Shown here in pieces: positions 11,402 to 31,217 of a stretch of DNA of 64,000 nt. The notes beneath the pieces were generated by a model that worked only from the letters and a program-made list of their open reading frames with translations, made no database searches and had not been told where the DNA came from. The position numbers and the translations under genes are program-made. Each line of letters opens with the position of its first letter. Position 1 is the stretch's first letter. Source of the stretch: Nocardia flavorosea NBRC 108225 (lineage in GTDB: Bacteria; Actinomycetota; Actinomycetes; Mycobacteriales; Mycobacteriaceae); NCBI RefSeq assembly GCF_001613385.1, contig NZ_BDCG01000017.1, positions 124,001 through 188,000 of the forward strand, read 5' to 3'.

Positions 11402-11781
11402 GCCCGCGCCCCTTCGGTCGAGGACTGTGCCGGTATGAGCGCGAAATCCGCGCTGAACGAGACTTGATACCGGTCGATGAGGCCGTCGGCGCCGATATGC
11501 ATGGCGGCGACGAACCAGCCGGTGGTCACGGAATCGTTCTCGGTGACCGCACCGTGGGCGAACTGCATATCGCCGTCGACGGCCACCCGGAGCATCCGGT
11601 GTTTGCGGTTCACCTTCGGCCTGCCGCTCAGGTAGTCGAACATGGCCGCACGACCGCGGCCCTGGTTGGCTCCTGTCGGCAGTATCATCGCGAACTCGAC
11701 ATCCTCGGCCAGCATGGCCGTCGCCTCCCGCAGTCTGCCGCTGTCGACCGTCGCGTAGTAGTCCTCGATCACGTGGGTCAT
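11398..11781 (-). CDS. SnoaL/NTF2-like protein (first of a tandem pair)
   Basis: 127 aa; begins THVIEDYYATVDSGRLREATAMLAEDV, a typical SnoaL-like opening, and ends with LIDRYQVSFSADF. The start codon lies at the edge of the operator-like element, and the predicted -10 box (CTAAGT on the minus strand, 11789-11794) places transcription start at about the ATG itself. No ribosome-binding site precedes it, so translation is probably leaderless. It heads the SnoaL/SnoaL/MDR unit, divergent from the acyl-CoA dehydrogenase. Confidence 0.75.
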   Translation of the reverse strand: MTHVIEDYYATVDSGRLREATAMLAEDVEFAMILPTGANQGRGRAAMFDYLSGRPKVNRKHRMLRVAVDGDMQFAHGAVTENDSVTTGWFVAAMHIGADGLIDRYQVSFSADFALIPAQSSTEGARA

Positions 11782-11798
11782 GAAATGAACTTAGTTCA
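11781..11798 (-). promoter_or_regulatory. Operator-like element (copy D) inside the SnoaL-pair promoter
   Basis: TGAAATGAACTTAGTTCA differs from the 18-mer at 13075 and 31200 at four positions and keeps both TGAA and AGTTCA ends. On the minus strand a -35 TCGACA (11812-11817), 17-base spacer and -10 CTAAGT (11789-11794) overlap it. A protein bound here would block the promoter. Confidence 0.5.
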
Positions 11799-11845
11799 GC
11801 CAACCTCTTCTTGTCGAGAGGTTCAGCCGCTAGGGTCAGCATTAT

Positions 11846-11863
11846 CGAATTGAACTCAACTCA
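11846..11863 (+). promoter_or_regulatory. Operator-like element (copy E) upstream of the acyl-CoA dehydrogenase
   Basis: CGAATTGAACTCAACTCA matches the 18-mer at 12 of 18 positions and directly follows CATTAT (11840-11845), a possible -10 box. It is weaker than the copies at 13075 and 31200. It sits 10 bases before the gene's start codon. Confidence 0.35.
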
Positions 11864-11873
11864 AGGGGAGATT

Positions 11874-13016
11874 ATGCCTCCGACCTCGGCAGCACCCGCC
11901 GAACACCCCTGGCCGGGCTCGGAACCGCCGGGATTGTCCCCCGATCCCGAACAGGTTCAACTGCGCGAATCGCTGCGGGGACTGCTCGGAAAGTACAGCA
12001 ATATCGACCACGTCCGGGCAATCGCGGACACCGGCCTCGGCTACTCACCGCAACTGTGGCGGATGCTCGTCGACGAGATGTCGGTGACCGGCCTGGCCGT
12101 ACCGGAACAGCACGGCGGCCTCGGCTACGGAACGGCCGAGCTGGCGGTCGTCCTCGAAGAATGCGGCCGGGCGCTGGTCTGCGAACCCGTCTACAGCTCG
12201 GCAGTCCTCGGCACACACGCACTGCTGACGGCACCGGAAGCCGAAGGCAATCCACTTCCGGAGGTTCTCGCCGGGAACCTCGTCGCCACGATGAGTTCGC
12301 TCGATCCGGCCACCGACGATCTGCGGGCGACGCCGAGTCCGCACGGATGGCGGATCGACGGCACGGTCACCCACCTCACCGGCGGGCGCAGCGCCGATAT
12401 CGTCATCGCCTCGGCAGAAACGGCCGGCGGCCCGAGACTGTTCGCGCTGCAACCATCGAATGATGCAGTGCGCACGGACCTACGTGTACTCGACCCCACC
12501 AGGCGACAAGCCGATCTGACCGTGCGCGACTGCCCGGCCGTGGCACTCACCGCACCCGACGCCACCCCGGCGGCGCGCTCCCGGTTGCGCGATCTGGCGA
12601 CGCTCGCCCTCGCCTGCGAGAACACCGGAATCATCGAACGCCTGCTGGAAATGACCGTGGAGTACGCCGCTACCCGGCACCAGTTCGGCCGGGCCATCGG
12701 CTCGTTCCAGGCGATCAAACACCGGCTGGCCGATCTGCTGGTCTCACTGGAACGCGCGCGGTCGGCATCGCGGTATGCGGCAGCACTCTATGCCGAGGAC
12801 CCTCATTCGGCCCGCTTGGCCGTCGCGGTGGCCGGTGCGGTATGCACCGACGCTGCTGTTCACGCGGCGGCCGAGGCTGTGCAGCTACACGGCGGAGTGG
12901 GGTTCACCTGGGAACATCCCGCGCACTCCTATCTTCGCCGGGTATTGGGAAACGAAGCGGCACAGGGCGATGCGCGCACACACCGCACCCGTGTCGCCGC
13001 ACTGATCGGCGTGTGA
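11874..13016 (+). CDS. Acyl-CoA dehydrogenase (FadE-like, alpha-subunit-like short form)
   Basis: 380 aa; ATG 11874 with AAGGGGAG upstream. The helical N-terminal domain contains LAVPEQHGGLGYGTAELAVV. The C-terminal part contains YAATRHQFGRAIGSFQAIKHRLADL and AVQLHGGVGFTWEHPAHSYLRR, standard ACAD signatures for FAD and electron-transfer contacts. The middle beta domain is degenerate. Such proteins often pair with a second FadE to form an alpha2beta2 enzyme, as in steroid degradation; the FadE at 15.5 kb is a candidate partner. Confidence 0.85.
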   Translation: MPPTSAAPAEHPWPGSEPPGLSPDPEQVQLRESLRGLLGKYSNIDHVRAIADTGLGYSPQLWRMLVDEMSVTGLAVPEQHGGLGYGTAELAVVLEECGRALVCEPVYSSAVLGTHALLTAPEAEGNPLPEVLAGNLVATMSSLDPATDDLRATPSPHGWRIDGTVTHLTGGRSADIVIASAETAGGPRLFALQPSNDAVRTDLRVLDPTRRQADLTVRDCPAVALTAPDATPAARSRLRDLATLALACENTGIIERLLEMTVEYAATRHQFGRAIGSFQAIKHRLADLLVSLERARSASRYAAALYAEDPHSARLAVAVAGAVCTDAAVHAAAEAVQLHGGVGFTWEHPAHSYLRRVLGNEAAQGDARTHRTRVAALIGV

Positions 13017-13045
13017 CCAGCCGCGACGTTCGCCGGAAATCCGTA

Positions 13046-13074
13046 TTGACGCGCTTCGCGCCGTCGAGTACAAC
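13046..13074 (+). promoter_or_regulatory. Promoter of the ten-gene catabolic operon
   Basis: TTGACG (-35, 13046-13051), 17-base spacer, TACAAC (-10, 13069-13074). This is the best housekeeping-type promoter in the window and ends exactly where operator copy A begins. The crotonase start lies 43 bases downstream. Confidence 0.6.
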
Positions 13075-13093
13075 TGAAGTGAATCCAGTTCAG
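13074..13093 (+). promoter_or_regulatory. Operator-like palindrome (copy A)
   Basis: A 20-base imperfect palindrome with CTGAA and TTCAG ends. Its core TGAAGTGAATCCAGTTCA (13075-13092) is identical to 31200-31217. It begins at the last base of the -10 box of the operon promoter, a position expected for a repressor. Confidence 0.65.
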
Positions 13094-13117
13094 GAAATGA
13101 TCCCGAAAGAGGCTCCG

Positions 13118-13906
13118 ATGATCGACACCGACCACATCGTCCTGGAAAAAGACGGCGATATCGCGCGCGTCTGGCTCAACCGCCCGCACAAGAAGAACGC
13201 AGTGACGGTGGAACTGCTGCACCGGCTCGACGAGATCATCGTCGAGGTGGACAACGATCCCGAGCTGAAGGTGCTGGTACTGCGGGGGCGCAACAACACC
13301 TTCTGCTCCGGCTTCGACCTCGACGAACTGCGCGAGAACTACGTCGGCAAAACCAATGCCATGGACGTCGCGGTGCTCTCCGCGAAGGTCTGCGACCGGC
13401 TGTACTCGATGAACACTCCGTCGGTCGCGGTACTCGAAGGCCACGTCACCGCGGGCGGGTTCGAGCTCATGATCTCCTGCGATTTCGCGGTCGCCGCCGA
13501 GGACGCCAAGATCGGCGACTTCCACATCCGGCGGGCCCTGTTCGGCGGGGCCGGCCCGATCTACCGGCTCCCCCGGATGATCGGTATCCGCAAGACCAAG
13601 GAGCTGATGCTCACCGGCAAGCTGCTGAACGGCCGCGAGGCCGCCGACTTCGACCTGATCAATGCCTGCGCCCCCGCCGCGGAACTGGATCAGCTCGTCG
13701 CCGATTTCATCGCTCCGATCGTGGACAAGAGCCCGTTCGCCATGAAGCTCACCAAGATGACCATCGATCGGGGTCTGGATGCCGATATCCAATCGCTGAT
13801 GGTGATGGAACACCTCGCCGTCGGCAATGCCCTGCAGTCCGAGGACGCGCGCGAAGGCGTGAACGCCTTCCTGGAAAAGCGGGAACCGAAGTGGGTCGGG
13901 CGCTGA
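13118..13906 (+). CDS. Enoyl-CoA hydratase/isomerase (crotonase) family protein
   Basis: 262 aa; ATG 13118 with GAAAGAGG upstream (an in-frame ATG at 13097 is less well placed). Crotonase features: LNRPHKKNAVT, FCSGFDLDEL, and GHVTAGGFELMISCDFAVAAEDAKIG. The first catalytic Glu seems present (GGFEL), but the second, normally in a PE motif, is replaced in DFHIRRALFGG. Hydratase activity is therefore doubtful and isomerase, hydrolase or C-C lyase chemistry is possible. First gene of the large operon, just after operator copy A. Confidence 0.85.
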   Translation: MIDTDHIVLEKDGDIARVWLNRPHKKNAVTVELLHRLDEIIVEVDNDPELKVLVLRGRNNTFCSGFDLDELRENYVGKTNAMDVAVLSAKVCDRLYSMNTPSVAVLEGHVTAGGFELMISCDFAVAAEDAKIGDFHIRRALFGGAGPIYRLPRMIGIRKTKELMLTGKLLNGREAADFDLINACAPAAELDQLVADFIAPIVDKSPFAMKLTKMTIDRGLDADIQSLMVMEHLAVGNALQSEDAREGVNAFLEKREPKWVGR

Positions 13907-13941
13907 ATTCCGGATAGCAGTCACAAATCGGAAGGGACGAC

Positions 13942-14316
13942 ATGGGCGAGCAGGTGAAACCGGTACTGGAAGGCAGTAGGTGCGCGGTATGCGGCACGGT
14001 GGGTTATCCGGCGAGCGCGCATTGCGCGCGCTGCGCCGCGCCGACCGCCGAACCGCTGACGCTGAGCACCGAAGGCGTGGTGTGGGCGCATACCGTGCAA
14101 CGGTTCGCACCGAAAGCGCCGCCGTATGTCGTTCCCGCCGAAGGCTTCACGCCCTACGCGGTCGGCTATGTCGAACTGCCCGAGGGAATCCGGGTCGAGG
14201 CGATCCTCGACTGCGACGATTTCGCCGATCTGGACCGGGCACCGGTACGCCTCGTCGCGGTAGCGCCGGTGCCGCGGTTCGCCACCACACACCGTCAGCA
14301 GAGCGAGGTCCGGTGA
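13942..14316 (+). CDS. DUF35 OB-fold protein with rubredoxin-like zinc ribbon
   Basis: 124 aa. Four cysteines in two pairs (C14, C17, C28, C31: RCAVCG and HCARC) form the zinc ribbon. The rest is an OB-fold with VVWAHTVQRFAPKAPPYVVP and YAVGYVELPEG, which in this family often binds acyl-CoA. DUF35 proteins act as obligate partners of thiolase-like Ltp aldolases in steroid side-chain degradation. The next gene, overlapping by 3 bases, is such a thiolase-like protein, so the two probably form a complex. Confidence 0.85.
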   Translation: MGEQVKPVLEGSRCAVCGTVGYPASAHCARCAAPTAEPLTLSTEGVVWAHTVQRFAPKAPPYVVPAEGFTPYAVGYVELPEGIRVEAILDCDDFADLDRAPVRLVAVAPVPRFATTHRQQSEVR

Positions 14317-15464
14317 CCCAGCAGGTTTCGATCATCGGCAGCGGGTTGTCCCGCTTCGGCCGGCAGCCCGGGGTCACCGGGCGGCAACTCGCCGTCCAGG
14401 CGATCGGCAATGCGCTAGCGGACGCCGGGCTGACCTGGCCCGATATCCAGGTTGCCTACGGCGGCAGCGACGGGTCCGGATTGGCGGACACCCTGGTGGC
14501 CGAACTCGGTTTCACCGGAATCCCGTTCACCAATGTCAAGAACGGCTGCGCCACGGGTGGCAGCGCATTGTTCTCCGCGGTCAACGCGATCCGCTCCGGC
14601 GCCGCGGAGATCGCTCTCGCCGTCGGTTTCGACAAGCACCCGCGGGGCGCGTTCGACCCCGTCCCCGCCGATTGGGGTCTGCCCGAGGGCTACGGGTCGG
14701 CCGGGCTCATGGTGACGACACAATTTTTCGGCGCCAAGATCGGCCGCTATATGCGCGAGCACGGTATCTCCGAGGCGACGCTGGCCATGGTCGCCGAGAA
14801 GGCCTACCGCAACGGCAGTCGCAATCCGAATGCCTGGCGCCGCGATCCGATCTCGGCGGAGCAGATCCTCTCGGCCGAGATGGTCAACGATCCGCTCACC
14901 AAGTTGATGTTCTGCTCTCCTGGTGAGGGCGGCGCGGCTGTGGTGGTCGCAAGTTCGGCGGCGGTCCGCCGCCTCGGCGGCCGGCCGGTCCGGCTGCGGG
15001 CCATCAGCCATCGCACCCGGCGGTTCGGCTCCTTCGAGGTGTTCAGTCCGGCTGTCCAGGGCACCGGTGAACCGACCAGTGTCAGCGCGGATGCCGCCTC
15101 GGCGGTGTTCGAACAGGCCGGTATCGGACCGGCGGAGATCGGTGTCGCGCAACTCCAGGACACCGAGAGCGGTGCGGAGATCATGCATATGGCCGAATGC
15201 GGGTTCTGTGTTCCCGGGGAACAAGAGGAGGTGATCGCGGCGGGCGCCACCGAGATCGACGGCCGGCTGCCGATCAATACCGACGGCGGATGTATTGCCA
15301 ATGGCGAACCCATCGGTGCCTCGGGGCTGCGGCAGGTGCACGAGATCGTGACCCAGCTGCGTGGTGAAGCCGGCGATCGGCAGGTACCGGGCGCGCCGAA
15401 AACCGGTTTCACCCATGTGTACGGTGCCCCCGGAATCAGCGCCTGTACGGTTCTGTCGGTCTGA
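14313..15464 (+). CDS. Thiolase-like lipid-transfer protein (Ltp/SCP-x type), probable aldolase subunit
   Basis: 383 aa, GTG start overlapping the DUF35 stop (GTGA). The thiolase fold is evident: KNGCATGGSALFSAVNAI with the usual nucleophile-position Cys, GEGGAAVVVAS, and a C-terminal APGISACTVLS. The catalytic histidine motif GHPxGxSG reads NGEPIGASG here, so that histidine is absent. This pattern is typical of the Ltp group that pairs with DUF35 proteins and performs retro-aldol cleavage instead of thiolysis. It probably cleaves a beta-hydroxyacyl-CoA in this pathway (inference). Confidence 0.85.
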   Translation: MTQQVSIIGSGLSRFGRQPGVTGRQLAVQAIGNALADAGLTWPDIQVAYGGSDGSGLADTLVAELGFTGIPFTNVKNGCATGGSALFSAVNAIRSGAAEIALAVGFDKHPRGAFDPVPADWGLPEGYGSAGLMVTTQFFGAKIGRYMREHGISEATLAMVAEKAYRNGSRNPNAWRRDPISAEQILSAEMVNDPLTKLMFCSPGEGGAAVVVASSAAVRRLGGRPVRLRAISHRTRRFGSFEVFSPAVQGTGEPTSVSADAASAVFEQAGIGPAEIGVAQLQDTESGAEIMHMAECGFCVPGEQEEVIAAGATEIDGRLPINTDGGCIANGEPIGASGLRQVHEIVTQLRGEAGDRQVPGAPKTGFTHVYGAPGISACTVLSV

Positions 15465-15474
15465 GGTGGACACA

Positions 15475-16683
15475 GTGAACACACAGCAGTTGCCCGACCT
15501 CACCGAATTCACCGAGCAGGCCCGCGCCTGGCTTGCCGGTACGGCGGCACCGCGAACGGCATCCACCTGGGGCGCCGGTGACGATTCGGTGGCGGTTTTC
15601 GAGAACTGGACCGCCACGGAAGAACGCCGGCACACCGACCGCATCCGCGCCTACGAACAGGCCAAATTCGATGCGGGCTGGGGTGCACTCACCTGGCCCG
15701 CCGAATACGGCGGCCAGGGACTGCCGATGTCCTACGCGCTGGCCTTCCGCCGCGCCGAGGAAGAATTCGAGGTACCGCGGCGGACCGAGATGTTCTCGGT
15801 CACTCAGCAATTGGTGGCGCCGACGATCGAGCAGTGGGGCACCGATGAGCAGCGGGAAAGATATGTGCGGGCGATGCTGCGTACCGATCTCATCGCATGC
15901 CAGCTCTTCTCCGAAACCGAGGCCGGATCGGATCTGGCCGCGGTGCGCACCAAGGCCACCCGCAACGCCGACGGCGCCTGGACACTCGACGGGCACAAGG
16001 TGTGGACGTCCGGGGCCCGCGTCGCCGACCTCGGGGTCGCGGTATGCCGGACCGATCCCGCGGCGCCGAAGCACGCGGGACTCACCGTCTTCCTGGTGCC
16101 GATGGACGCACCGGGCGTCTCCGTCCGGCCGATCCGGCAGATGACCGGCGGGAGTTCGTTCAACGAGGTCTATCTCGACGGCGTCGTACTCGACGACGGA
16201 TTGCGGCTCGGACCGGTCGGTAAGGGCTGGCCGGTGGCCCTCACCGTGCTCGCCGCGGAGCGGCTCGACGGCGCCGGGCTGGGTCTGGCGAATGCGGACC
16301 AGGCCGTGGAGCTGGCCCGCAACCTCGGCCGTCAACTGACCGAACTCGAACGCGACCGAGTGGCGGACCTGGTGACCCGCAGTTATGTGCAGCGGATCGC
16401 CGGAATGCGGGTGGCCGCGGCGGTGGTCGCGGGCCGCGATCCCGGACCGGAGGCGTCGGTCGGCAAATTGCTCGCCACCGACACCATGGCCCGGACCTCC
16501 GAGGTTGTGCGGCTACTGCTCGGCCGGGAACTCACCGCCGATTCCGGACGCTGGGGCACCTACGCCTGGACCGAACACGTCCTGGGCGCGCCCGGGTACC
16601 GGATCGCGGGCGGGACCGACGAGATCCAGCACAACATCATCGCCGAGCGGGCGCTCGGCCTACCCAAGGAGCCGCGGCCATGA
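15475..16683 (+). CDS. Acyl-CoA dehydrogenase (FadE-like)
   Basis: 402 aa from GTG 15475 (GTG 15466 is an in-frame alternative). N-terminal WGALTWPAEYGGQGLPMS, middle FSETEAGSDLAAVRTKATR and WTSGARVADLGV form the acyl and FAD site. C-terminal YRIAGGTDEIQHNIIAERALGL carries the family signature. It alpha,beta-dehydrogenates an acyl-CoA. The ATG of the kinase gene overlaps its stop by 4 bases. It may pair with the shorter FadE at 11.9 kb. Confidence 0.9.
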   Translation: MNTQQLPDLTEFTEQARAWLAGTAAPRTASTWGAGDDSVAVFENWTATEERRHTDRIRAYEQAKFDAGWGALTWPAEYGGQGLPMSYALAFRRAEEEFEVPRRTEMFSVTQQLVAPTIEQWGTDEQRERYVRAMLRTDLIACQLFSETEAGSDLAAVRTKATRNADGAWTLDGHKVWTSGARVADLGVAVCRTDPAAPKHAGLTVFLVPMDAPGVSVRPIRQMTGGSSFNEVYLDGVVLDDGLRLGPVGKGWPVALTVLAAERLDGAGLGLANADQAVELARNLGRQLTELERDRVADLVTRSYVQRIAGMRVAAAVVAGRDPGPEASVGKLLATDTMARTSEVVRLLLGRELTADSGRWGTYAWTEHVLGAPGYRIAGGTDEIQHNIIAERALGLPKEPRP

Positions 16684-17630
16684 CGCTGGAACAGCGAGTG
16701 CGTGACCGGTTGCGCGCAGAACTGAATATCGAGGTCACCGGATTCGAATCACTGCCCGGCGGTCATTCGGGCCTCACCTACCGGGTCGCCACCACCGGTC
16801 CTGAGTTCGTGGTGAAGGCGGTGCCCGAGGGCCGCAAACCGGTCGGCCGCCACGATATGCTGCGGCAGGCGCGGGTGATGCGGGCGCTGGCCGATACCGA
16901 TGTGCCGGTGCCGCGTATCGTGGCCGTCGACGAGGCCGAACCCGCGTGGTTCGCCATGGAATTCGTGTCAGGGGATTCGCTCGAGCCGGTCCTGGACGAC
17001 CCGGCCGTCGAGCCCACCCTGGCGGCGGCACGAATGCGACGAGCCGCCGAGGTGCTGCCGCGGCTGCACGCGATCGATCCGGGCTCGGTGCCGGGCGCGG
17101 AAGCGGCACTGACACCGGCCGATGAACTCGCCCGCTGGGCGCGCACCCTGGGCGCGGTGCCGCCCGAGCTGGTCGCGGGCGGCGACCGGCTGCTCGGCCT
17201 GCTGGGCCGGCGGATCCCCGAACCCGTGCCCCCCACGCTCGTGCACGGTGACTACCGGCTCGGCAATATCATCGCCGACGGTACCGAACCGGTCGCGCTG
17301 ATCGACTGGGAGATCTGGAGCGCCGGAGATCCACGCGTGGAACTCGGCTGGTTCCTGGTATTCGCCGACGGCACGAATTTTCCGGAGGTGGGCCGCACCG
17401 TGCCGGGCCTGCCCGATCCGGCCGAACTCGTCGACCGCTACCGCGCTGGTGGTCCAGAACTGTCCGACCTGCCTTGGTTCGACGCGCTCGGGCGGCTGAA
17501 GATGGCCGCGATCATGGGTCACAACCTGCGGCGGCACCGGGAAGGCCGGCACCACGACCCGGACCAGGAAAAGCTGCCCGCCACCATCAATCGCCTCATC
17601 GAGACCGGAACCGCGCTCCTCGCCGGTTGA
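16680..17630 (+). CDS. Aminoglycoside-phosphotransferase-fold kinase (LvaA/ACAD10-11 kinase-like)
   Basis: 316 aa. Kinase features: FESLPGGHSGLTYRV (nucleotide loop), Lys in FVVKAVPEG, catalytic loop LVHGDYRLGNII (HGDxxxxN) and metal-binding ALIDWEIWSAGDP. It sits between two acyl-CoA dehydrogenase genes, 28 bases before the second. In ACAD10/11 a kinase of this fold is fused to an acyl-CoA dehydrogenase, and in Pseudomonas levulinate catabolism LvaA and LvaC are separate; both phosphorylate 4-hydroxyacyl-CoA. I infer the same role, not antibiotic resistance. Confidence 0.85.
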   Translation: MTLEQRVRDRLRAELNIEVTGFESLPGGHSGLTYRVATTGPEFVVKAVPEGRKPVGRHDMLRQARVMRALADTDVPVPRIVAVDEAEPAWFAMEFVSGDSLEPVLDDPAVEPTLAAARMRRAAEVLPRLHAIDPGSVPGAEAALTPADELARWARTLGAVPPELVAGGDRLLGLLGRRIPEPVPPTLVHGDYRLGNIIADGTEPVALIDWEIWSAGDPRVELGWFLVFADGTNFPEVGRTVPGLPDPAELVDRYRAGGPELSDLPWFDALGRLKMAAIMGHNLRRHREGRHHDPDQEKLPATINRLIETGTALLAG

Positions 17631-17658
17631 GGTCCTCACCCGATTCAGGAGCCCTATC

Positions 17659-23807: not shown

Positions 23808-23825
23808 TGAACAGAATTCAGTTAG
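23808..23825 (+). promoter_or_regulatory. Operator-like element (copy G) before the EthD/MBL unit
   Basis: TGAACAGAATTCAGTTAG; with its flanking base it forms the near-palindrome CTGAACAGAATTCAGTTAG. It shares the TGAA and CAGTT blocks with the other copies. It lies directly before the AGGAG ribosome-binding site of the EthD-like gene. Confidence 0.45.
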
Positions 23826-23833
23826 GAGTACCT

Positions 23834-24169
23834 GTGTACAACCTCATCGTGCTGGCGTCCCGGCCCAGCGACTGGTCGCACGAACAGTTCATCGAATGGT
23901 GGCGCGGCGAACACGCCGAAATGACCTATCCGCTGCCCGGCCTGCTGCGCTGGCAACACACCGAACTACTCGACACCTTCGACGACAAATCGGCCGGCTG
24001 GGACGGGTTGTCGATCCTGAGCTTCGAATCCCGCGAGGCGCTCGACGCGGCGCTGGCCAGCCCCGAATGGAAAGCCGCCGTCCAGCATGTGGGCGCGATG
24101 CGCGGCCGCCGCATGATCTGGTTCGGCGAAGAGCAGACCATGGTGCCCCTGGGCGGCAGCGGCGAATGA
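23834..24169 (+). CDS. EthD-domain protein
   Basis: 111 aa, GTG start with AGGAG at 23824-23828. Pattern VLASRPSDWSHEQFIEWWRGEHAEM and FESREALDAALASPEWKAA is typical of EthD dimeric alpha/beta barrel proteins, which occur with ether- and polyketide-degrading enzymes and may be isomerases or hydrolases. The stop overlaps the MBL gene start (ATGA), so the two are translationally coupled. Confidence 0.75.
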   Translation: MYNLIVLASRPSDWSHEQFIEWWRGEHAEMTYPLPGLLRWQHTELLDTFDDKSAGWDGLSILSFESREALDAALASPEWKAAVQHVGAMRGRRMIWFGEEQTMVPLGGSGE

Positions 24170-25185
24170 GCACGCACTGGGCCGAGCCCGGCTGCTACCC
24201 GGTCGCCGACGGCATCCACCGCATTCCGCTGCAACTACCGCAGGACGGATTACGCGCGGTGAACGTCTATGCGCTGGAAACCGATACCGGACTCGTCCTG
24301 ATCGACGGCGGCTGGCACCGCCCGGGCACCTACCGCGAGCTCACCGCCGGTCTCGCGCGGATCGGCCGCTCCCCCGACGATATCCACGATGTCCTGGTCA
24401 CCCATATCCACCGCGACCACTACACCTTCGCGGTGGAACTGCGGCGCCGCCACGGCTGCCGAGTCCATCTCGGCGCCGGCGAATCTGCCGGACTCGCGGA
24501 GATCCGCGCACTCGGCAACAATGTGCCCACCAGTTCCCTGCGCGAACTACGCCGCGCCGGCGCCACCGATATCGCGGCACGTGCGTACGCCGACAGCATC
24601 GGCGAACCCTTCGACGTCGCCGACTGGGCAGCCCCCGATCGATGGCTGCAGCCCGGGACACTCACCCTCGGCGGGTACGAACTCGAGGTCCGTGCCACCC
24701 CGGGCCATACCAAGGGACACGTGGTTTTTCAGGACCGCGCCCGGCGGCTGCTGTTCACCGGCGACCATCTGCTGCCGACCATCACACCCTCCATCGGCTT
24801 CGAACTGGGCATCTGGGAGCTCCCGCTGGACAACTACCTGAGCTCGCTCGCTCTGCTCCGCGACGACGATGATCAGACCATGCTGCCCGCCCACGGCCCC
24901 GACGGCGGCAACGCCGGCCGGCGGGCCCGGGATCTGCTGGATCATCACGATCGGCGATTCGGGCAGATCCGCACCGCCGTCACCGAACTCGCCCCCTGCA
25001 CGGGTCTCGAAGTCGCCCGCGCGCTGACCTGGACGCGCCGGGAGCGCCCATTCGACACCCTCGATACGTTCAATCAGATGGTGGCCGCCTGCGAAACGAT
25101 GGCGCACCTCGATGTTCTGGTCGCCCGGAACGACCTGACCGGCGAAACAGACTCCGGTATCGATTTTTTCGCACCCGCGCTCTGA
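24166..25185 (+). CDS. Metallo-beta-lactamase-fold hydrolase
   Basis: 339 aa. Zinc motif VTHIHRDHYTFA (HxHxDH) near residue 80, then GHTKGH and FTGDHLLPT carrying the later His and Asp ligands. This glyoxalase-II-like group includes thioesterases, lactonases and quorum-quenching enzymes. With the EthD-like protein it could hydrolyse a thioester or lactone produced in the island's pathway. A strong hairpin lies downstream. Confidence 0.85.
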   Translation: MSTHWAEPGCYPVADGIHRIPLQLPQDGLRAVNVYALETDTGLVLIDGGWHRPGTYRELTAGLARIGRSPDDIHDVLVTHIHRDHYTFAVELRRRHGCRVHLGAGESAGLAEIRALGNNVPTSSLRELRRAGATDIAARAYADSIGEPFDVADWAAPDRWLQPGTLTLGGYELEVRATPGHTKGHVVFQDRARRLLFTGDHLLPTITPSIGFELGIWELPLDNYLSSLALLRDDDDQTMLPAHGPDGGNAGRRARDLLDHHDRRFGQIRTAVTELAPCTGLEVARALTWTRRERPFDTLDTFNQMVAACETMAHLDVLVARNDLTGETDSGIDFFAPAL

Positions 25186-25575: not shown

Positions 25576-26340
25576 TCAGGCGCAGGTCCAGCCGCCGTCC
25601 ACGTAGAGTTCGCTGCCGGTGACGAAGGTCGAGTCGTCTCCGGCCAGGAACGCCACCGCGGCGGCTACTTCCTCGGGCTTGCCGAGCCGGTCCATCGGTG
25701 TATTAGCAAGCATCGCGCGATACCGGTCGGTGCCTTCATAGCGTTCGAGGAGTTGTCCGGTTTCGATGAAGCCCGGATGGATCGAGTTGACGCGGACACC
25801 TTTCGCCGCCCAGTGCAGGGCGGCGTTCTTCGTCATCGTCCGCACCGCCCCCTTGGCGGCCGCGTAGGCGAGGCTGTTACCCAATCCGCCGACGGTGCCG
25901 AGGATCGAGCAGAGATTGACGATGGAGCCGCCCCCACTCTGCTCGATCAGGGCTCCGGCATGTTTCATACCCAGCCACGTGCCGGTCTGGCCGACCTCGA
26001 TCACCCGGTTGTAGCGGTCGAGATCTTCGTCGACCACCGAGGCCAGGCTGCCGATGGCGCCGTTGTTGACCAGGGCGTCCAACCGCCCGTACCGGTCGCG
26101 CACCGCACTCACCACGGCGCCCCATTCCTGTTCCCGGGCGATATCGAGGGTCCGGGTGAGATGGTGGTCCGGCCGGTCCAGGGTGGCGACGAGATCGGCG
26201 CATGCCGCCTCGCCGAGGTCGGTCACCACCAGCACGGCGCCTTCGGCGGCGAGGCGGCGTGCGATTTCCACACCGATACCGCCGGTCGCACCGGTCACCA
26301 GGATCACCTTGTCGATCAACCGCGACGGACCCGTAGCCAT
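25576..26340 (-). CDS. SDR-family oxidoreductase (last gene of the ABC transporter operon)
   Basis: 254 aa. TGATGGIGVEIARRL, catalytic Ser in VNLCSILG, YAAAKGA, C-terminal STFVTGSELYVDGG. The usual NNAG motif reads NNGA. It is separated from the permease by 43 bases on the same strand and is probably cotranscribed with the importer, linking uptake to a first redox step on the imported compound. Confidence 0.85.
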   Translation of the reverse strand: MATGPSRLIDKVILVTGATGGIGVEIARRLAAEGAVLVVTDLGEAACADLVATLDRPDHHLTRTLDIAREQEWGAVVSAVRDRYGRLDALVNNGAIGSLASVVDEDLDRYNRVIEVGQTGTWLGMKHAGALIEQSGGGSIVNLCSILGTVGGLGNSLAYAAAKGAVRTMTKNAALHWAAKGVRVNSIHPGFIETGQLLERYEGTDRYRAMLANTPMDRLGKPEEVAAAVAFLAGDDSTFVTGSELYVDGGWTCA

Positions 26341-26383
26341 GGCAGGCCTTTCTGTTTCGAGGAGATGTATGCGGGCCGGCCGT

Positions 26384-28081
26384 TCACAACTTGTTCAGCA
26401 CGTTGCGGCCGCCGACGAGCATGGCCACACCGACACCCGCGGTGGTCACCGCTGTCATCAGCAGCGCCATCGCCGCCACCAGCGGGTAGGAGCCGTTCTG
26501 CCACAGGTCGAACAGCAGGGTGCCCATCACCTGGGTGGTGGAGGCGCGCACCAGCAACGAGGCCGCGAATTCGTGGGTCAGCAGGATGAACATCAGGGCG
26601 ACGGCGCTGAGGACGGTGGGCCGCATCAGCGGCAGCATCACCCGCAGATTGGTCACCAGTGGCGACGCGCCGCTGGTCGCCGACGCCTCACTGTAGGTGT
26701 TGCCGAGCGAAAGCATGGCGGTCATCTGCATCCGGGTCGCGTAGGGCAGCATCAGCACGATGTAGACCAGGATGATCACGGTCTGGGTCCCGTACAGGAT
26801 GAGCGGCGGCTCGGTATAGGTGAGCAGGAACCCGACACCGAAGATAACTGCCGGAATACCCAAGGGCAGCGCGGTGATCAGATCGGCCAGTAATGCCATG
26901 ATCTTGAACTGCCGCCCGCGGACCAAGAGGGTGGCCATCAGATAACCCAGCGGTACGCAGATCAGCACGGCGGCCAGCGAGGTCGACACACTGGTGAGCA
27001 CAGAGCTCATGATGGCGCTGTCGGCGGCCAGGGCACGGAAGTTGTCCAGCGTGAGCAGATCCCAGGACAGCGACCCGGACCAGTACGGGGTCAGCGCGAC
27101 GATGATCAGTCCGATCAGTGGGATGATCAGCGCGAACAGGGCGTACACCACAATGGTCACCGTGGCCCACAGCGAGCGGCCCCCGGCCGGCGCGAAGGAT
27201 TTCCCGCCGTGGGTGACGAAACGGGATTGGTTGCCCAGCAGTCCTTTCTGGATCAGCACCAGCACCAACCCGAAAATCACCAGTGGTGAACCGGCGGCGG
27301 CCGCCGCGGCGAAATCCGACGGTGATTCCGAGACCCGGCGATACATCTCGGTCGTCAGCACTTTCACACCGTAGTTCTGGCCGAGCAGCAGCGGGCCCGT
27401 GAACTGGCCGAGCCCCAACAGCAGCGCGATACCGCCACCGTAGATCAGTGACGGCCGCAGCAGTGGCAGGACGACCCGGAAGAAAACTCCGACGGTCGAG
27501 GATCCGCTGATCTGCGCAGCCTCCAGATGTTCGGCGCCGATGTTCTGCATACCGGCGCTGACGAACAGGTACACGAACGAAGTGAGCCCGAATCCGGTGA
27601 GGATGATGATCCACGGCACGGTGTATACGTCGATCGGCCCGGAATCCGTGCCGCTCCACCAGGGCAGCTTCCGGAGCAGGACGTTCAGGTAGCCCGGCCC
27701 GGGCGAGAGCAGGAATGCCCAGCCCACGATGTTGGCGACCGCCGGCATCACGATCGGCAGGATCGGGATTATCCGCAGGAACCCGAAGCGTTGCGGCAGC
27801 CGGCTCGCCGCGAACGCGAGCAGCGTGCCGAGCACCATGGCGATCACCAGCGACCCCAGCGCGAGCGCGATGGTGGTCCCGATGGTTTCGCCGATATCGA
27901 AACGGGTGTACTGCGCCCGGTAGCCGCGGGCACCGTCTTCGAAGGCCAGCGACTGCAACCGAATCATCGGCAGCACCACCAGATATGCCAGCACGGCGAG
28001 CAGGGCGAAATACCCGAGCCGGGTCCGCCATTGCGCCGGTAAGGCGAACGAGCGGTTCACGGCGGTGGTGACGGTGGCCAT
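26384..28081 (-). CDS. ABC transporter permease, two fused inner-membrane domains (Fe3+/AfuB-type family)
   Basis: 565 aa with about 12 hydrophobic segments in two similar halves, each with a binding-protein-dependent transport (EAA-like) loop: EAAQISGSSTVGVFFRVVLPLL in the first and EASATSGASPLVTNLRVMLPLM in the second (parts shown exceed the key E-A-x-G core only slightly). This architecture is seen for FbpB/AfuB-like importers of iron, thiamine or organophosphonates. The start overlaps the ATPase stop by one base. The cargo is more likely an organic catabolite than iron, given the neighbouring SDRs (inference). Confidence 0.85.
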   Translation of the reverse strand: MATVTTAVNRSFALPAQWRTRLGYFALLAVLAYLVVLPMIRLQSLAFEDGARGYRAQYTRFDIGETIGTTIALALGSLVIAMVLGTLLAFAASRLPQRFGFLRIIPILPIVMPAVANIVGWAFLLSPGPGYLNVLLRKLPWWSGTDSGPIDVYTVPWIIILTGFGLTSFVYLFVSAGMQNIGAEHLEAAQISGSSTVGVFFRVVLPLLRPSLIYGGGIALLLGLGQFTGPLLLGQNYGVKVLTTEMYRRVSESPSDFAAAAAAGSPLVIFGLVLVLIQKGLLGNQSRFVTHGGKSFAPAGGRSLWATVTIVVYALFALIIPLIGLIIVALTPYWSGSLSWDLLTLDNFRALAADSAIMSSVLTSVSTSLAAVLICVPLGYLMATLLVRGRQFKIMALLADLITALPLGIPAVIFGVGFLLTYTEPPLILYGTQTVIILVYIVLMLPYATRMQMTAMLSLGNTYSEASATSGASPLVTNLRVMLPLMRPTVLSAVALMFILLTHEFAASLLVRASTTQVMGTLLFDLWQNGSYPLVAAMALLMTAVTTAGVGVAMLVGGRNVLNKL

Positions 28082-29244
28082 CAGGCGTGCCCTCCCGCAC
28101 TCACGGCGACGGGTTCCGGCGCGGCGGCGGGCTCGTCTCCCGGCATCGCGAAAACACGCAGGCTCGCCGGGGAGAAGCTCACGACCAGCCGTGCGCCCGG
28201 GCGGCTGCCCCGCAGGGCCGCACTGTGCCGGGCGGCGGGCGCCCGCAGGATCAGTTGTTCACCACCGGTTTCGACGGTGACATCGAAGTACCGGCCACCG
28301 TATTCGTAGGTCACCAGTTCGGCGTGCAGGGCGAGATTGCCGGGCGGCACCTCCTCGGCACCGGTGTGCAACAGCACATCGTCTGGACGCAACCGGGCGA
28401 CGGCGGTGGTGTGCCGATCGGCGGAATCGCGGACCACGGCATGGGTGAGGTCGATCGGGTCGCCGGCCGAGGTTTCCCAGCCGTCGTGTCCGCGCCGCAG
28501 CGACAACTTGTTGCTCATCCCGATGAAGGCGGCGACATAGTCCGATACCGGGTTCTCGAAGACCTGTTCGGGCGCATCGTACTGTTCGATCTTGCCGGCC
28601 TTCATGATGGCGAGCCGGTCGCCCAGGGCGAATGCCTCGGACTGGTCATGAGTGACGAATACCGCGGTGAATCCGAGCTTCTGGTGCAGCTGGTGGATCT
28701 GGGTGCGCACCTGGTCGCGGAGCCGGGCGTCGAGGTTGCTCAGCGGTTCGTCGAACAGCACCAGATCGGGCCGCGCCACCAGGCCGCGGGCGACAGCCAC
28801 TCGTTGTTGCTGGCCGCCGCTGAGCTGGGACGGATACCGGTCGAGCAACTTCCCGCAATCGACCATCTCGGCAGCCGCCTCCACCGCCCCCTCGGCGAGG
28901 GCTTCCTTCATCTTCCGGACCTTCAACGGGTAGCGGATATTGTTGCGGACGGTCATATGCGGCCACAGCGCGTAGGACTGGAACACCATCCCGATATTGC
29001 GTTTGTGAGCGGGCGTGTTCAGCCGCGCCTCGGCGTCGAAAACGGGCCGGTCCTTGAAAGCGATCGCGCCGCCCTGGGGTGTTTCCAACCCGGCCAGGCA
29101 GCGTAGCGTCGTAGTTTTCCCGCACCCGCTCGGACCGAGCAGCACCAGGAATTCGCCCTCCTCGATGGTGAGGTCGAGTTGATCGACGACAACGTTGTTG
29201 CCATAGGTCTTGGTCAGGCCGGAAACGGTGAATTGCGACGTCAT
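28081..29244 (-). CDS. ABC transporter ATP-binding protein (PotA/FbpC-like)
   Basis: 387 aa from the ATG complementary to 29242-29244. Walker [12 protein letters not shown]-loop [12 protein letters not shown], signature [13 protein letters not shown], Walker B LVLFDEP, switch His [13 protein letters not shown]. Residues about 245-387 form the TOBE-like regulatory domain. It energises the fused permease downstream. Its start is 2 bases from the end of the upstream SDR gene, confirming operon structure. Confidence 0.92.
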
Positions 29245-29245
29245 C

Positions 29246-30028
29246 TCATGCCTTCTGGGTCGATAGTTTCGGAGTGCGGACGCCGGCGGCGGTTCCGCCG
29301 TCGACGAGAAGATCGGTTCCGGTGACATAACTGCTCTCGGCGCCGGCCAGAAAGGCGATCACCGCGGCCACTTCGGCGGGGTCGCCTCGGCGCTGCATCG
29401 GAATACTGCGGATATATGCCGCTACATCGTCGGCGGCGAAGCCGGGGGCCGCGGTGATCTCGGTCGTGATACTGCCGGGGCATACCGAATTCACCCGGAT
29501 GCCCTGTTCGGCCAATTCCAGTGCGGCGACCTTGGTCAGCGCGCGGACACCGAATTTGGCGGCGCCGTACGCGCCGAGTTCGGCGGTGGCGAGCACACCG
29601 CGTAGCGAGGAGATATTCACGACCGAGCCGCCCCCGGTCATCGCCGCGGCCGCGGTGCGCAATCCGAGGAATGTCGCGACCAGATGCTGGTCGATCATCC
29701 GGCGGAACTCGTCGAGCGTGGTCTGCGTCAGCGTCGCTTTCATCGCAGTTCCGGCACTGTTGACGAGCACATTCATCTCGTGCCCGGACTGTTGCATCGC
29801 GCCGGCCACCGCGTCCCATGCGGCCTCGTCGGTGACGTCGAGGTGACGGTAGTGGGCGCGTGGGCCCAGCGCCCGCGCGCGTTCCCGGCCGGCGATATCG
29901 TCGATATCGGTGAGGTAGACCGTCGCGCCCTTCGCGACGAACAGTTCGGCGGTTGCCCCGCCTATCCCGCCGGATGCTCCGGTCACCAGTACGTGGGTGC
30001 CGTGCCAGGGCTCGGCCGTATCGTCCAT
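29246..30028 (-). CDS. SDR-family oxidoreductase
   Basis: 260 aa. TGASGGIGGATAELF, NSAG in place of NNAG, NISSLRG, YGAAKFG and SSYVTGTDLLVDGG. Lies between the binding-protein and ATPase genes of the importer operon, an unusual insertion that argues that its substrate is the imported compound. Exact reaction unknown. Confidence 0.87.
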   Translation of the reverse strand: MDDTAEPWHGTHVLVTGASGGIGGATAELFVAKGATVYLTDIDDIAGRERARALGPRAHYRHLDVTDEAAWDAVAGAMQQSGHEMNVLVNSAGTAMKATLTQTTLDEFRRMIDQHLVATFLGLRTAAAAMTGGGSVVNISSLRGVLATAELGAYGAAKFGVRALTKVAALELAEQGIRVNSVCPGSITTEITAAPGFAADDVAAYIRSIPMQRRGDPAEVAAVIAFLAGAESSYVTGTDLLVDGGTAAGVRTPKLSTQKA

Positions 30029-30068
30029 GCCTATCCTTCGTCGATGTATCGGGAACGCCGGAGCCGGA

Positions 30069-31106
30069 TCAGCTCTGGAATCGCCGGGCCCATTCCTGGG
30101 AGTACTGCGCGACCTTGTCCGGTGTCAGATCACGGGTGTCGGGTGCGGCGATATCCTGTGCCTGCACAACGGAGCCCGGGATATCGGGCAACGCTGCGGC
30201 ATAGCCTTCGTTGAGCGCGGTCTGTCCCTCGCGAGTGGCCAGGAAGTCAACCAGAAGCTGGGCGGCGTTCGGATGTGGCGCGACGCTCAGCACATGGCTG
30301 TACCAGGGTGTGCCCCACGGTTGCGGCGGAAGAGCCCAGTCGACCGGAGCGCCCGCGGCCACTTCGGTCACCAGCGGCTGCACCGACGGAGTCACCATGA
30401 TCTCGCCCGAGGCGAGGGCCTGTGCGATACCGAGTGCACTCGGATATATCCGGGGTTTCAGCTCGGCCATCCGCTCCCAGAAGTCGGCGCCGTAGGTATC
30501 GGCGTAATACCGGTAGAGATCGACGTACGACGCGATGCCGGTGGGATTGACGATGCCGATCTTGCCGGTGTATTTCGGGTCGAGAATGTCACGTGGCGAA
30601 GTCAGGCCGGAAGGCACTGCGTCGGTGTTCCAGCCCAGGGCGAACACGGCCGCGCTGCTGAGCGCGAATCGGTTCTCCAGCACGCCGGCCTCCGGCCGAT
30701 ATTCCGGTGCCCGCAGGTTCGGCCCGATCAGTTCGGTCGAATAGCTGCCCGATTGGGCGGCATTGGTGATCCATGTGGCGTCGGTGAGCATATGGACGTC
30801 CGCGGTACCGCGCCCGGTCCGGTTCTCCGTTTCCACGCGGGGATTGATATCGGCGTCGGTACCCCGGACGAATTCGAGATCGATGCGGGGATACGCCGTT
30901 TCGAAGGCCTTTTCGAGCCGTTCGAGATTGGCCGGTTTCTGGCTCGAGTAGAGCAGCACGCTGCCTTCGTTCTCGGCGGCGCCGATCACTTCGTCCCATG
31001 TTCCCGATACCGGAGCCGTGGTTCCGGGACTCGCGCCACAGGCAGTGAGTACGGAGGTGACAGCGAGGACCGCGACGGCCGCCGTGGCCTGGAACAGCAA
31101 CTTCAT
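30069..31106 (-). CDS. Extracellular solute-binding lipoprotein of the ABC importer
   Basis: 345 aa from ATG (complement of 31104-31106); a GTG at 31121 gives five more residues. Lipoprotein signal peptide MKLLFQATAAVAVLAVTSVL followed by lipobox LTAC. Mature protein has family 1 / Fe3+-type binding features: WDEVIGAAENEGSVLLYSSQ, FETAYPRIDLEFVRGTDADI, GWNTDAVPSG and IAQALASGEI. It is paralogous to the frameshifted gene at 33.3 kb. It heads the importer operon, right after operator copy C. Confidence 0.88.
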   Translation of the reverse strand: MKLLFQATAAVAVLAVTSVLTACGASPGTTAPVSGTWDEVIGAAENEGSVLLYSSQKPANLERLEKAFETAYPRIDLEFVRGTDADINPRVETENRTGRGTADVHMLTDATWITNAAQSGSYSTELIGPNLRAPEYRPEAGVLENRFALSSAAVFALGWNTDAVPSGLTSPRDILDPKYTGKIGIVNPTGIASYVDLYRYYADTYGADFWERMAELKPRIYPSALGIAQALASGEIMVTPSVQPLVTEVAAGAPVDWALPPQPWGTPWYSHVLSVAPHPNAAQLLVDFLATREGQTALNEGYAAALPDIPGSVVQAQDIAAPDTRDLTPDKVAQYSQEWARRFQS

Positions 31107-31133
31107 AGTGCGAATACCCACATCCCACAGAAC

Positions 31134-31157
31134 TGAACTGATGTCAGTTTGAAACTA
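31134..31157 (-). promoter_or_regulatory. Operator copy C and -10 box of the importer operon promoter
   Basis: On the minus strand, TAGTTT (31152-31157) is the -10 box, 17 bases from the -35 TTGACA (31175-31180). Directly downstream lies the palindrome at 31134-31151, with AACTGA and TCAGTT arms around two bases. The layout equals that of copy A. Confidence 0.6.
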
Positions 31158-31199
31158 TGCCATACCCATTGTGGTGTCAATCACCTTGTGGCAATAATA

Positions 31200-31217
31200 T
31201 GAAGTGAATCCAGTTCA
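31200..31217 (+). promoter_or_regulatory. Operator copy B before the OYE-type reductase operon
   Basis: TGAAGTGAATCCAGTTCA, identical to 13075-13092. It overlaps TAATAT (31195-31200), a likely -10 box, and runs into the AAGGAGGAA ribosome-binding site. With copy C it brackets a 49-base divergent promoter region. Confidence 0.65.

What the first reader, a model, noticed from the sequence alone, without database searches (positions are those of the whole stretch)
11781..31217. A shared 18-base operator-like element defines a putative 26-kb catabolic regulon
TGAAGTGAATCCAGTTCA occurs identically at 13075-13092 and 31200-31217, 18 kb apart, both just after a -10-like box and before a catabolic operon. 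Related copies stand at 11781-11798, 11846-11863, 31134-31151, 23808-23825 and weakly 23001-23018. All lie at starts of transcription units between 10 and 36.5 kb. One TetR-family gene (23070-23693) sits in the middle. I infer a single regulator controlling uptake and degradation of one substrate. The motif does not look like the KstR or KstR2 sites of cholesterol regulons.
Basis: partly seen in the sequence, partly recalled or inferred. Interest (0 to 1): 0.8.

Follow-up and report, generated by a model that had tools for sequence, protein, structure and literature searches.

The report
TetR-type regulon for an unknown acid
In a Nocardia bacterium, one regulator of the TetR family probably controls about 26 genes for taking up and breaking down an unidentified acid, and the DNA sites it would bind recur in front of the same genes in many other actinobacteria and also at two other places in this genome.

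Summary
All seven sites exist, and they are the only seven peaks in the window for a matrix trained solely on other genera. They are variants of one near-palindrome, TGAACTGAATTCAGTTCA. By spacing, every gene from 9974 to 36519 falls in a unit headed by a site.

One local regulator is strongly supported by comparison, not by experiment. The TetR and a marker enoyl-CoA hydratase occur together: 24 of 148 Nocardia have both, and the same 5 of 200 genomes of the order. Three or more strong sites occur in 24 of 26 TetR+ Nocardia and 0 of 122 TetR- ones. The recognition helix is 99-100% conserved in 81 sequences.

The regulon is larger than claimed: three more sites lie on two other contigs, before two further binding-protein genes and a DUF gene group. 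On a Rhodococcus plasmid those genes lie inside the cluster.

Likely mechanism: repression just downstream of the -10 box, relieved by an acyl-CoA intermediate. The substrate is unknown; a kinase/dehydrogenase pair resembling ACAD11 suggests a 4-hydroxyacyl-CoA step. New member of a known kind.

The parts
11781..11798 (.). operator TGAAATGAACTTAGTTCA, starting on the start codon of the SnoaL gene (minus-strand unit SnoaL - small protein - ADH_N_2 reductase)
   Evidence: the same sequence recurs in several Nocardia
11846..11863 (.). operator CGAATTGAACTCAACTCA before the acyl-CoA dehydrogenase gene 11874-13016
13075..13092 (.). operator TGAAGTGAATCCAGTTCA directly after a -10-like box (TTGACG, 17 bases, TACAAC), before the long catabolic unit 13118-23026
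22996..23018 (.). weak operator before the TetR gene, inside the 3' end of the ligase gene
   Evidence: 13.2 bits; TetR-upstream peaks in 37 of 80 loci
23070..23693 (+). TetR-family regulator, 207 aa
   Evidence: Pfam TetR_N and TetR_C_24; model pLDDT 92
23808..23825 (.). operator TGAACAGAATTCAGTTAG overlapping the likely ribosome-binding region of the EthD gene
   Evidence: EthD-upstream peaks in 35 of 65 loci
31134..31151 (.). operator TGAACTGATGTCAGTTTG before the minus-strand transport unit (binding protein SBP1 - SDR - ATPase - permease - SDR)
31200..31217 (.). operator TGAAGTGAATCCAGTTCA before the unit OYE - SBP2 - SDR - FAD enzyme
9974..11026 (-). reductase (ADH_N_2/ADH_zinc_N)
11030..11401 (-). 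small protein, thought NTF2-like by its place beside SnoaL (no Pfam match)
   Evidence: 0 families; homologues beside the TetR cluster in other loci
11398..11781 (-). SnoaL-like protein
11874..13016 (+). acyl-CoA dehydrogenase, small-subunit type
   Evidence: best NCBIfam model IpdE2, below cut-off
13118..13906 (+). enoyl-CoA hydratase/isomerase, one of the most conserved cluster proteins (marker gene Ech)
13942..14316 (+). OB-fold/zinc-ribbon partner protein
14313..15464 (+). thiolase-like protein, related to SCP2-type and benzoylsuccinyl-CoA thiolases
15361..16683 (+). acyl-CoA dehydrogenase, large-subunit type (open frame; true start probably near 15475 by the length of the Rhodococcus homologue)
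16680..17630 (+). APH-type kinase, relative of the ACAD11 kinase domain
17659..18861 (+). acyl-CoA dehydrogenase, relative of the ACAD11 dehydrogenase domain
18858..19613 (+). SDR oxidoreductase
19626..20396 (+). SDR oxidoreductase
20396..21469 (+). zinc alcohol dehydrogenase
21509..23026 (+). acyl-CoA ligase (AMP-binding)
23834..24169 (+). EthD-domain protein
24166..25185 (+). MBL-fold hydrolase
25576..26340 (-). SDR oxidoreductase
26384..28081 (-). fused ABC permease, nearest the aminoethylphosphonate/sulfate type
28081..29328 (-). ABC ATPase with TOBE domain (open frame; start probably near 29244)
   Evidence: length of the Rhodococcus homologue
29246..30028 (-). SDR oxidoreductase
30069..31106 (-). 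ABC substrate-binding protein SBP1
31229..33172 (+). OYE/FadH-type flavin oxidoreductase
33169..34146 (+). ABC substrate-binding protein SBP2 (open frame; start uncertain)
34307..35134 (+). SDR oxidoreductase (160 bases after SBP2, so its own promoter is possible)
35164..36519 (+). FAD_binding_2 enzyme

Best explanation
The TetR protein of 23070-23693 is the local repressor of a catabolic regulon. As a dimer it binds variants of an 18-bp palindrome (TGAACTGAATTCAGTTCA) at seven places in the 26.5-kb island and at three places on two other contigs. At the main promoter the palindrome starts right after the -10 box, so a bound repressor would block RNA polymerase at initiation. When the substrate enters through the ABC importer and is activated by the local acyl-CoA ligase, an acyl-CoA intermediate would release the repressor. 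Shown: sites, conservation, and the promoter layout at the main unit. Inferred from strong co-occurrence and an invariant recognition helix: that this TetR is the protein that binds. Inferred from the family: repression, dimer, and the acyl-CoA inducer. The pathway probably handles a bulky carboxylic acid through a 4-hydroxyacyl-CoA stage (weakest step, about 0.35).
For: Seven and only seven peaks in the window with a matrix from other genera. In 80 orthologous loci, 255 peaks, 222 upstream of mapped starts and 1 inside a mapped gene, while the upstream zone is 19.8% of the bases; 20 column-permuted palindromic matrices gave 5.55 peaks on average, at most 24. Of 31 loci where the region before Ech is held, 30 have a peak there; in the other 32 Ech loci the stretch is cut off. 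TetR and Ech go together: 24 of 148 Nocardia have Ech and all 24 have the TetR; in the order the same 5 of 200 genomes have both. At least 3 strong sites in 24 of 26 TetR+ Nocardia and 0 of 122 TetR-; the two exceptions (G021, G110) lack Ech. Residues 44-58 (VGIGQTALYHYFESK), holding the predicted recognition helix 48-54, are 99-100% conserved in 81 sequences that are otherwise 55-97% identical to the window's. TTGAC stands 28-34 bases before the site in 22 of 23 distinct Ech upstream sequences. Solved folds nearest to it include KstR2, AibR with isovaleryl-CoA, and FadR. The satellite genes lie inside the cluster, with sites, on a Rhodococcus plasmid.
Against: No binding, expression or ligand data exist here. 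The site before the TetR gene itself is weak in this genome (13.2 bits), and only 37 of 80 loci have a peak there, so autoregulation is unsure. The 80 loci were found through the TetR and include near-duplicates, so they are not independent, and 35 of them (L099-L133) gave the seeds of the matrix; the other 45 alone give 147 peaks, 134 upstream, 1 inside. Only the Ech-based searches avoid the retrieval bias, and the order-level test rests on five genomes. 35 of 122 TetR- Nocardia and 23 of 195 TetR- genomes of the order have one or two look-alike sites, so other regulators may use similar sequences. TTGAC at the right distance was found in 22 of 37 distinct SBP1 sequences and in none of 29 OYE, 35 EthD, 37 TetR or 22 SnoaL sequences. 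One ACAD10/11-specific residue (H634) is Tyr.
Confidence: 0.82

Rival explanations
1. The sites belong to another, unlinked regulator; the TetR gene only travels with the cluster.
For: TetR and cluster are inherited together in all Ech-bearing genomes tested, so co-occurrence alone cannot separate them; similar sites exist in genomes without this TetR (35 of 122 Nocardia; 23 of 195 in the order).
Against: The TetR sits beside cluster genes from Nocardia to Streptomyces, Nocardioides and Pseudonocardia, its recognition helix is invariant, and peaks stand before the TetR gene in 37 of 80 loci. In L120, where of the window's genes only TetR, OYE and two weak matches were mapped, similar sites still occur, there before P450 and aldehyde dehydrogenase genes.
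Confidence: 0.12
2. The TetR acts as an activator, or as both activator and repressor.
For: Some TetR-family proteins activate (recalled). Paired sites 65-66 bp apart occur at 11781/11846 and 31134/31200.
Against: The 13075 site lies directly downstream of the -10-like box and the same layout holds in 22 of 23 distinct Ech upstream sequences, a position for repression.
Confidence: 0.06
3. It is a steroid (KstR/KstR2/SRTF1) regulon under another name.
For: The closest named solved structures include KstR2 (Z 20.7, 25% identity; phmmer E 1e-10); the small dehydrogenase matches the IpdE2 model best; the FAD enzyme has weak matches to ketosteroid dehydrogenase models.
Against: The KstR model scores 31 bits against a cut-off of 280. 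None of the 30 proteins scanned between 8.1 and 40.2 kb shows a Rieske, extradiol dioxygenase or CoA-transferase domain. The KstR2 residues that I recall as HIP-CoA contacts (Arg162, Trp166) align with Leu and Ile (residue roles from memory).
Confidence: 0.1
4. The repeated sequence is chance or a transposon remnant.
For: Two copies are identical over 18 bases.
Against:: far above shuffled controls, placed at gene starts, conserved in many actinobacterial genera.
Confidence: 0.01

Closest known systems
KstR2 regulon (HIP catabolism in mycobacteria and rhodococci)
   Same: TetR-family repressor of related fold; acyl-CoA ligase, paired acyl-CoA dehydrogenases, enoyl-CoA hydratase and thiolase genes (pathway recalled; start of the abstract of PMC5380842 seen in a search listing).
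   Different: About 25% identity of the regulator, an ABC importer, an ACAD11-like pair, no CoA-transferase domain among the 30 proteins scanned; operators were not compared by a call (KstR2 site recalled only).
LvaA/LvaC of Pseudomonas putida and mammalian ACAD10/ACAD11 (PMC12440821, passages read)
   Same: Adjacent kinase and dehydrogenase genes; the dehydrogenase matches ACAD11 at E 1e-124; kinase Asp and Asn, dehydrogenase Asp753 and Arg626/Arg637 equivalents kept (numbering by my own count along the alignment).
   Different: The His634 equivalent is Tyr (HCMR becomes YAMR); the pair is part of a much larger gene set; activity untested.
AibR (TetR family, solved with isovaleryl-CoA, PDB 5k7f/5k7h/5k7z)
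   Same: Fold, Z 19.2-19.7.
   Different: 20-21% identity; its gene cluster was not compared.
SRTF1 of Nocardioides simplex (PMC7807495; sections 10 and 15 and passages read)
   Same: TetR-family regulator of catabolic genes that lack KstR/KstR2 sites.
   Different: There it is tied to kstD2 and steroids; no entry named SRTF1 was among the 34 PDB sequences matched by this TetR; operators not compared.

Membership tests
TetR-family repressor regulon | TetR-type HTH plus ligand domain | tested here: met
   Pfam TetR_N 1.7e-12, TetR_C_24 4.4e-19; predicted fold pLDDT 92 with TetR neighbours
TetR-family repressor regulon | shared palindromic operator before several units | tested here: met
   (6 or 7 of 9 palindromic pairs in each of 10 own-genome sites)
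TetR-family repressor regulon | operator at the regulator's own promoter | tested here: inconclusive
   weak site at 22996 (13.2 bits); 37 of 80 loci have one
TetR-family repressor regulon | direct binding and release by a ligand | not testable with these tools
   needs purified protein
KstR regulon | regulator is KstR | tested here: not met
   NCBIfam KstR 31 bits, cut-off 280
KstR2 regulon | regulator is KstR2 | tested here: inconclusive
   about 25% identity, Z 20.7 to 4w97; no curated KstR2 model was among the matches, and the recalled ligand residues are not kept
KstR/KstR2 regulon | ring-degradation enzymes (Rieske hydroxylase, extradiol dioxygenase, IpdAB) | tested here: not met
   none seen among 30 proteins of 8.1-40.2 kb; the rest of the genome was not searched for them
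ACAD10/11 - LvaA/LvaC 4-hydroxyacyl-CoA pair | kinase catalytic Asp and Asn | tested here: met
   VHGDYRLGN aligned to VHGDFKLDN of ACAD11; my text pattern matched 49 of 64 orthologues, 15 did not match it and were not looked at further
ACAD10/11 - LvaA/LvaC 4-hydroxyacyl-CoA pair | catalytic Asp753 and Arg626/Arg637 of the dehydrogenase | tested here: met
   read from the alignment with residue roles; GRLGPGRMHYAMR in 62 of 63 and IADGP.EVH in 62 of 63 orthologues
ACAD10/11 - LvaA/LvaC 4-hydroxyacyl-CoA pair | His634 of the HCMR motif | tested here: not met
   Tyr here and in 62 of 63 orthologues; so it is not filed as a member, only as possibly working like one
binding-protein-dependent ABC importer | binding protein, permease and ATPase together | tested here: met
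binding-protein-dependent ABC importer | substrate class | tested here: inconclusive
   best NCBIfam match of the permease PhnU2, 102.6 bits against a cut-off of 593; binding protein weakly like iron-type SBPs

The most novel reading that the evidence does not exclude
A regulon spread over actinobacteria in which one TetR repressor controls a single ABC permease/ATPase that is served by four paralogous binding proteins at three chromosomal places, feeding a pathway for a family of related natural acids or lactones, dismantled with a split bacterial ACAD10/11-type phosphorylation step. If right, it would be an unrecognised, widespread actinobacterial route for 4-hydroxy or 4-oxo alicyclic acids.
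Probability: 0.3. Interest if true: 0.65.

Novelty: new member of a known kind. Interest (0 to 1): 0.5.

Why it matters
It turns an unassigned 26-kb island into a defined regulon of 26 island genes plus about five satellite genes, with a testable operator, regulator and promoter layout. The same module is present in genera from Nocardia and Rhodococcus to Streptomyces. It predicts which proteins work together, including binding proteins on other contigs that gene order in this genome would not link, and gives a ready reporter (TetR plus the 13075 promoter) for finding the unknown substrate.

Tried and rejected
An unbiased dyad count over whole loci was dominated by dyads that I take to be conserved coding sequence; the motif's inner parts appeared only among others (AACTG-N4-CAGTT, ACTGA-N7-TCAGT), so it was not used as proof. 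A first self-refining matrix mixed registers that differ by five bases, because the site is made of repeated TGAAC-like pentamers; I replaced it by the hold-out matrix. The seeds of that matrix were still picked by similarity to TGAACT-N6-AGTTCA and include a few that look like coding sequence, so it is independent in sequence but not in idea. Its thresholds (13, 14 bits) were chosen after seeing scores.

The looser pattern TGAACT-N6-AGTTCA at 3 mismatches gave 1952 places against 646 for the control and is useless for the whole genome. The C8:187219 hit was set aside because it lies in an open frame.

Substrate: I looked for a named pathway through PDB matches, NCBIfam, plasmid neighbours and papers. 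Thiolase relatives on one Novosphingobium plasmid and one Rhodococcus opacus plasmid lie in other clusters without peaks of 13 bits. In ten paper searches no listed title or abstract start described this cluster, TetR or motif; that covers only the open-licence library, those terms and the rows listed; two of the searches were about known systems, and searches returned mostly unrelated papers.

SRTF1 was considered and set aside: no such name among the PDB sequence matches (that absence proves little).
Full report
WHAT WAS CLAIMED. An 18-base element recurs at seven places between 11.8 and 31.2 kb, each before a catabolic unit, and a TetR gene in the middle is proposed to be the regulator of all of them.

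THE SITES ARE REAL. The two exact copies are at 13075 and 31200; shuffles give 0.03 matches on average. A matrix built from 51 seed sequences of loci L099-L133, which hold no Nocardia, gives seven separate peaks of 13 bits or more in the window and no others; Markov copies of the window average 0.39 peaks, at most 4 in 200 runs. The threshold was set after seeing the scores; the weakest site scores 13.2, and one of 100 Markov copies reached 26.2. The adjoining 19.9 kb on each side peak at 10.6 and 10.8 bits. The best single description is a near-palindrome TGAACTGAATTCAGTTCA; the ten own-genome sites match it at 13 to 16 of 18 positions and have 6 or 7 of 9 palindromic pairs. The half-site is itself a repeat of TGAAC-like pentamers, so neighbouring registers five bases apart also score.

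WHAT THEY STAND BEFORE. The window is a Nocardia (nearest named relative N. carnea, TetR 97% identical), contig C17 of a 7.44-Mb genome. Reading the gene order with the sites, seven units are headed: SnoaL - small protein - reductase (minus, 9974-11781); a small acyl-CoA dehydrogenase (11874-13016); a long unit with enoyl-CoA hydratase (Ech), OB-fold protein, thiolase, large acyl-CoA dehydrogenase, APH kinase, third acyl-CoA dehydrogenase, two SDRs, alcohol dehydrogenase and acyl-CoA ligase (13118-23026); TetR (23070-23693); EthD and MBL hydrolase (23834-25185); a minus-strand transport unit with binding protein, SDR, ATPase, fused permease and SDR (25576-31106); and OYE, second binding protein, SDR, FAD enzyme (31229-36519). 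That is 26 genes. That they are co-transcribed is inferred from spacing; a 160-base gap before 34307 leaves room for another promoter, and in one other Nocardia (G020) the FAD enzyme gene has a site of its own (L153:2575).

CONSERVATION. The TetR query found 117 relatives in named genomes, of which the best 80 were kept. Ech is mapped in 63 of these loci and Ech or the permease in 69, from Nocardia, Rhodococcus, Gordonia, Williamsia and Dietzia to Streptomyces, Nocardioides and Pseudonocardia; 11 loci show neither within the stretch held. In these 1.6 Mb the hold-out matrix gives 255 peaks of 14 bits or more: 222 within 250 bp upstream of a mapped gene start, 1 inside a mapped gene, the rest beside genes not mapped. 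77 of 80 loci have at least one peak (L072, L094 and L100 have none). The upstream zone is 19.8% of the bases. Twenty column-permuted palindromic matrices give 5.55 peaks on average, at most 24. On the 45 loci not used for training (L054-L098) the figures are 147 peaks, 134 upstream, 1 inside. By gene, loci with an upstream peak: TetR 37 of 80, EthD 35 of 65, Ech 30 of 63, SBP1 27 of 37, SnoaL 21 of 23, OYE 16 of 23. Of the 33 Ech misses, 32 are loci that begin less than 60 bases before the gene; where the upstream region is held, 30 of 31 have the peak. The loci are related to one another and some are strains of one species, so these counts are not independent trials.

WHICH PROTEIN BINDS. 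In 148 Nocardia genomes the TetR is present in 26 and Ech in 24, all of them TetR+. Strong sites (up to 1 mismatch to TGAANTGANNTCANTTCA): three or more in 24 of 26 TetR+ genomes, 0 of 122 TetR- genomes; one or two in 35 of 122 TetR- genomes. The two TetR+ genomes without a site lack Ech at E 1e-50. Because the named loci were found through the TetR, I repeated the test over the order with Ech as query: 5 of 200 genomes have Ech and the same 5 have the TetR; they have 6, 3, 1, 2 and 3 strong sites, against none with two or more among 195 others, 23 of which have one. TetR and cluster are thus inherited together, which fits the TetR as regulator but cannot alone prove it. The further argument is the HTH: in 81 sequences residues 44-58, VGIGQTALYHYFESK, are 99-100% conserved, the predicted recognition helix is 48-54, and the operator is conserved over the same range.

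THE REGULON IS LARGER THAN THE ISLAND. In the whole genome six places match at up to one mismatch: three in the island, one on contig C21 and two on C24; at two mismatches three more, two in the island and one (C8) inside an open frame. The C21 site stands just before a binding-protein gene 60% identical to SBP1. One C24 site lies between another binding-protein gene (61%) and a DUF1254/DUF1214 protein; the other between a second DUF1254/DUF1214 protein and a DUF202-domain frame. I then fetched seven stretches of other Nocardia, chosen because one search had listed sites there, so that they hold sites is no result; what they hold beside them is: five (L148-L152) carry the C24-type binding-protein gene with DUF1254/DUF1214 or DUF202 genes, one (L154) the C21-type binding-protein gene, each with the site before it, and one (L153) proved to be part of the main island. 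On the plasmid of Rhodococcus qingshengii J1-2 the counterparts are all in one cluster with the TetR: four binding-protein genes, each closest to a different one of the four Nocardia paralogues (63-67% identity), the DUF genes, and sites before them. I see one permease/ATPase set in the island for all four; whether others exist in the genome was not searched.

PROMOTER LAYOUT. At 13075 the order is TTGACG, 17 bases, TACAAC, operator. In 22 of 23 distinct upstream sequences of Ech, TTGAC stands 28 to 34 bases before the operator, mostly 29 or 30. So the operator should cover the start of transcription. SBP1 shows TTGAC at 28 to 35 bases in 22 of 37 distinct sequences, some of the rest being the partner site of the divergent gene; 29 OYE, 35 EthD, 37 TetR and 22 SnoaL sequences do not show it. 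No transcription start was measured.

HOW IT PROBABLY WORKS. The predicted TetR fold lies nearest KstR2, PfmR, AibR, DarR, FadR and other structures; AibR with isovaleryl-CoA and FadR with stearoyl-CoA are in the listing. I infer repression at the start of transcription, relieved by an acyl-CoA intermediate made by the local ligase. The residues I recall as KstR2's ligand contacts are not kept, so the ligand should differ.

THE PATHWAY. The kinase-dehydrogenase neighbours at 16680-18861 are the best clue: the dehydrogenase matches ACAD11 at E 1e-124 and the kinase at about 1e-12. Against the residues named in PMC12440821 (passages read), Asp753, Arg626 and Arg637 and the kinase Asp and Asn are kept, His634 is Tyr. 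That suggests phosphorylation and elimination of a 4-hydroxyacyl-CoA. The thiolase with OB-fold partner, paired dehydrogenases and the set of reductases fit a bulky or ring-containing acid; the MBL protein could be a lactonase, but that is a guess. Of ten proteins beside sites at unmapped genes that I scanned (of the frames listed), some in Nocardioides, Sphaerisporangium and Nonomuraea are P450, aldehyde dehydrogenase, alpha/beta hydrolase or S15-type hydrolase, so the acid may be made from a neutral parent compound there.

NOVELTY. TetR-governed catabolic regulons are known in actinobacteria (KstR, KstR2, SRTF1); this is a new member, with an operator, a regulator and a substrate that I could not match to a name. 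Ten paper searches found no description of it in what they listed (see Tried and rejected).

Noticed in passing
genus g19 of family f15 (17 genomes with one hit): A near-identical single site (TGATATGAAGTCAGTTCA, TGATATGAATTCAGTTCA or a close variant) recurs in 16 of these 17 genomes, which lack this TetR; it looks like another regulator's operator.
   Followed up: no
G041, G048, G059, G066, G121: Another conserved look-alike, TGAAATGAACTCTATTCA or TGAAGTGAACTCTATTCA, occurs once each in five Nocardia without the TetR.
   Followed up: no
L120:3439, 5773, 12119: In Nocardioides immobilis, where most of the cluster was not mapped near the TetR, similar sites lie before an aldehyde dehydrogenase and a P450 gene, so the regulon content seems to differ there.
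   Followed up: partly
L101:13903 and L102:10736: In Sphaerisporangium and Nonomuraea the site precedes a binding protein of a different family (Peripla_BP_6), as if the importer had been swapped under the same regulator.
   Followed up: partly
L135:7740-12480: Two DUF1254/DUF1214 proteins, a DUF202-domain frame and a binding protein form a group tied to this regulon; their role is unknown.
   Followed up: partly
window 8106-9905 (-): Multicopper-oxidase-like protein directly downstream of the SnoaL unit; whether it belongs to the regulon is unclear.
   Followed up: no
L072 (Nocardia harenae) and genome G110: Close TetR orthologue (80%) in genomes without Ech or strong sites (G021, which by place and identity is the L072 genome, and G110); L072 has no peak within the 20 kb held: an orphan regulator.
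   Followed up: partly
L145 (Rhodococcus qingshengii J1-2 plasmid, 9775-16524): Here the cluster also holds a 3-hydroxyacyl-CoA dehydrogenase and an acetyl-CoA acetyltransferase gene, between sites at 11762-11879 and 17473, which could complete beta-oxidation.
   Followed up: no
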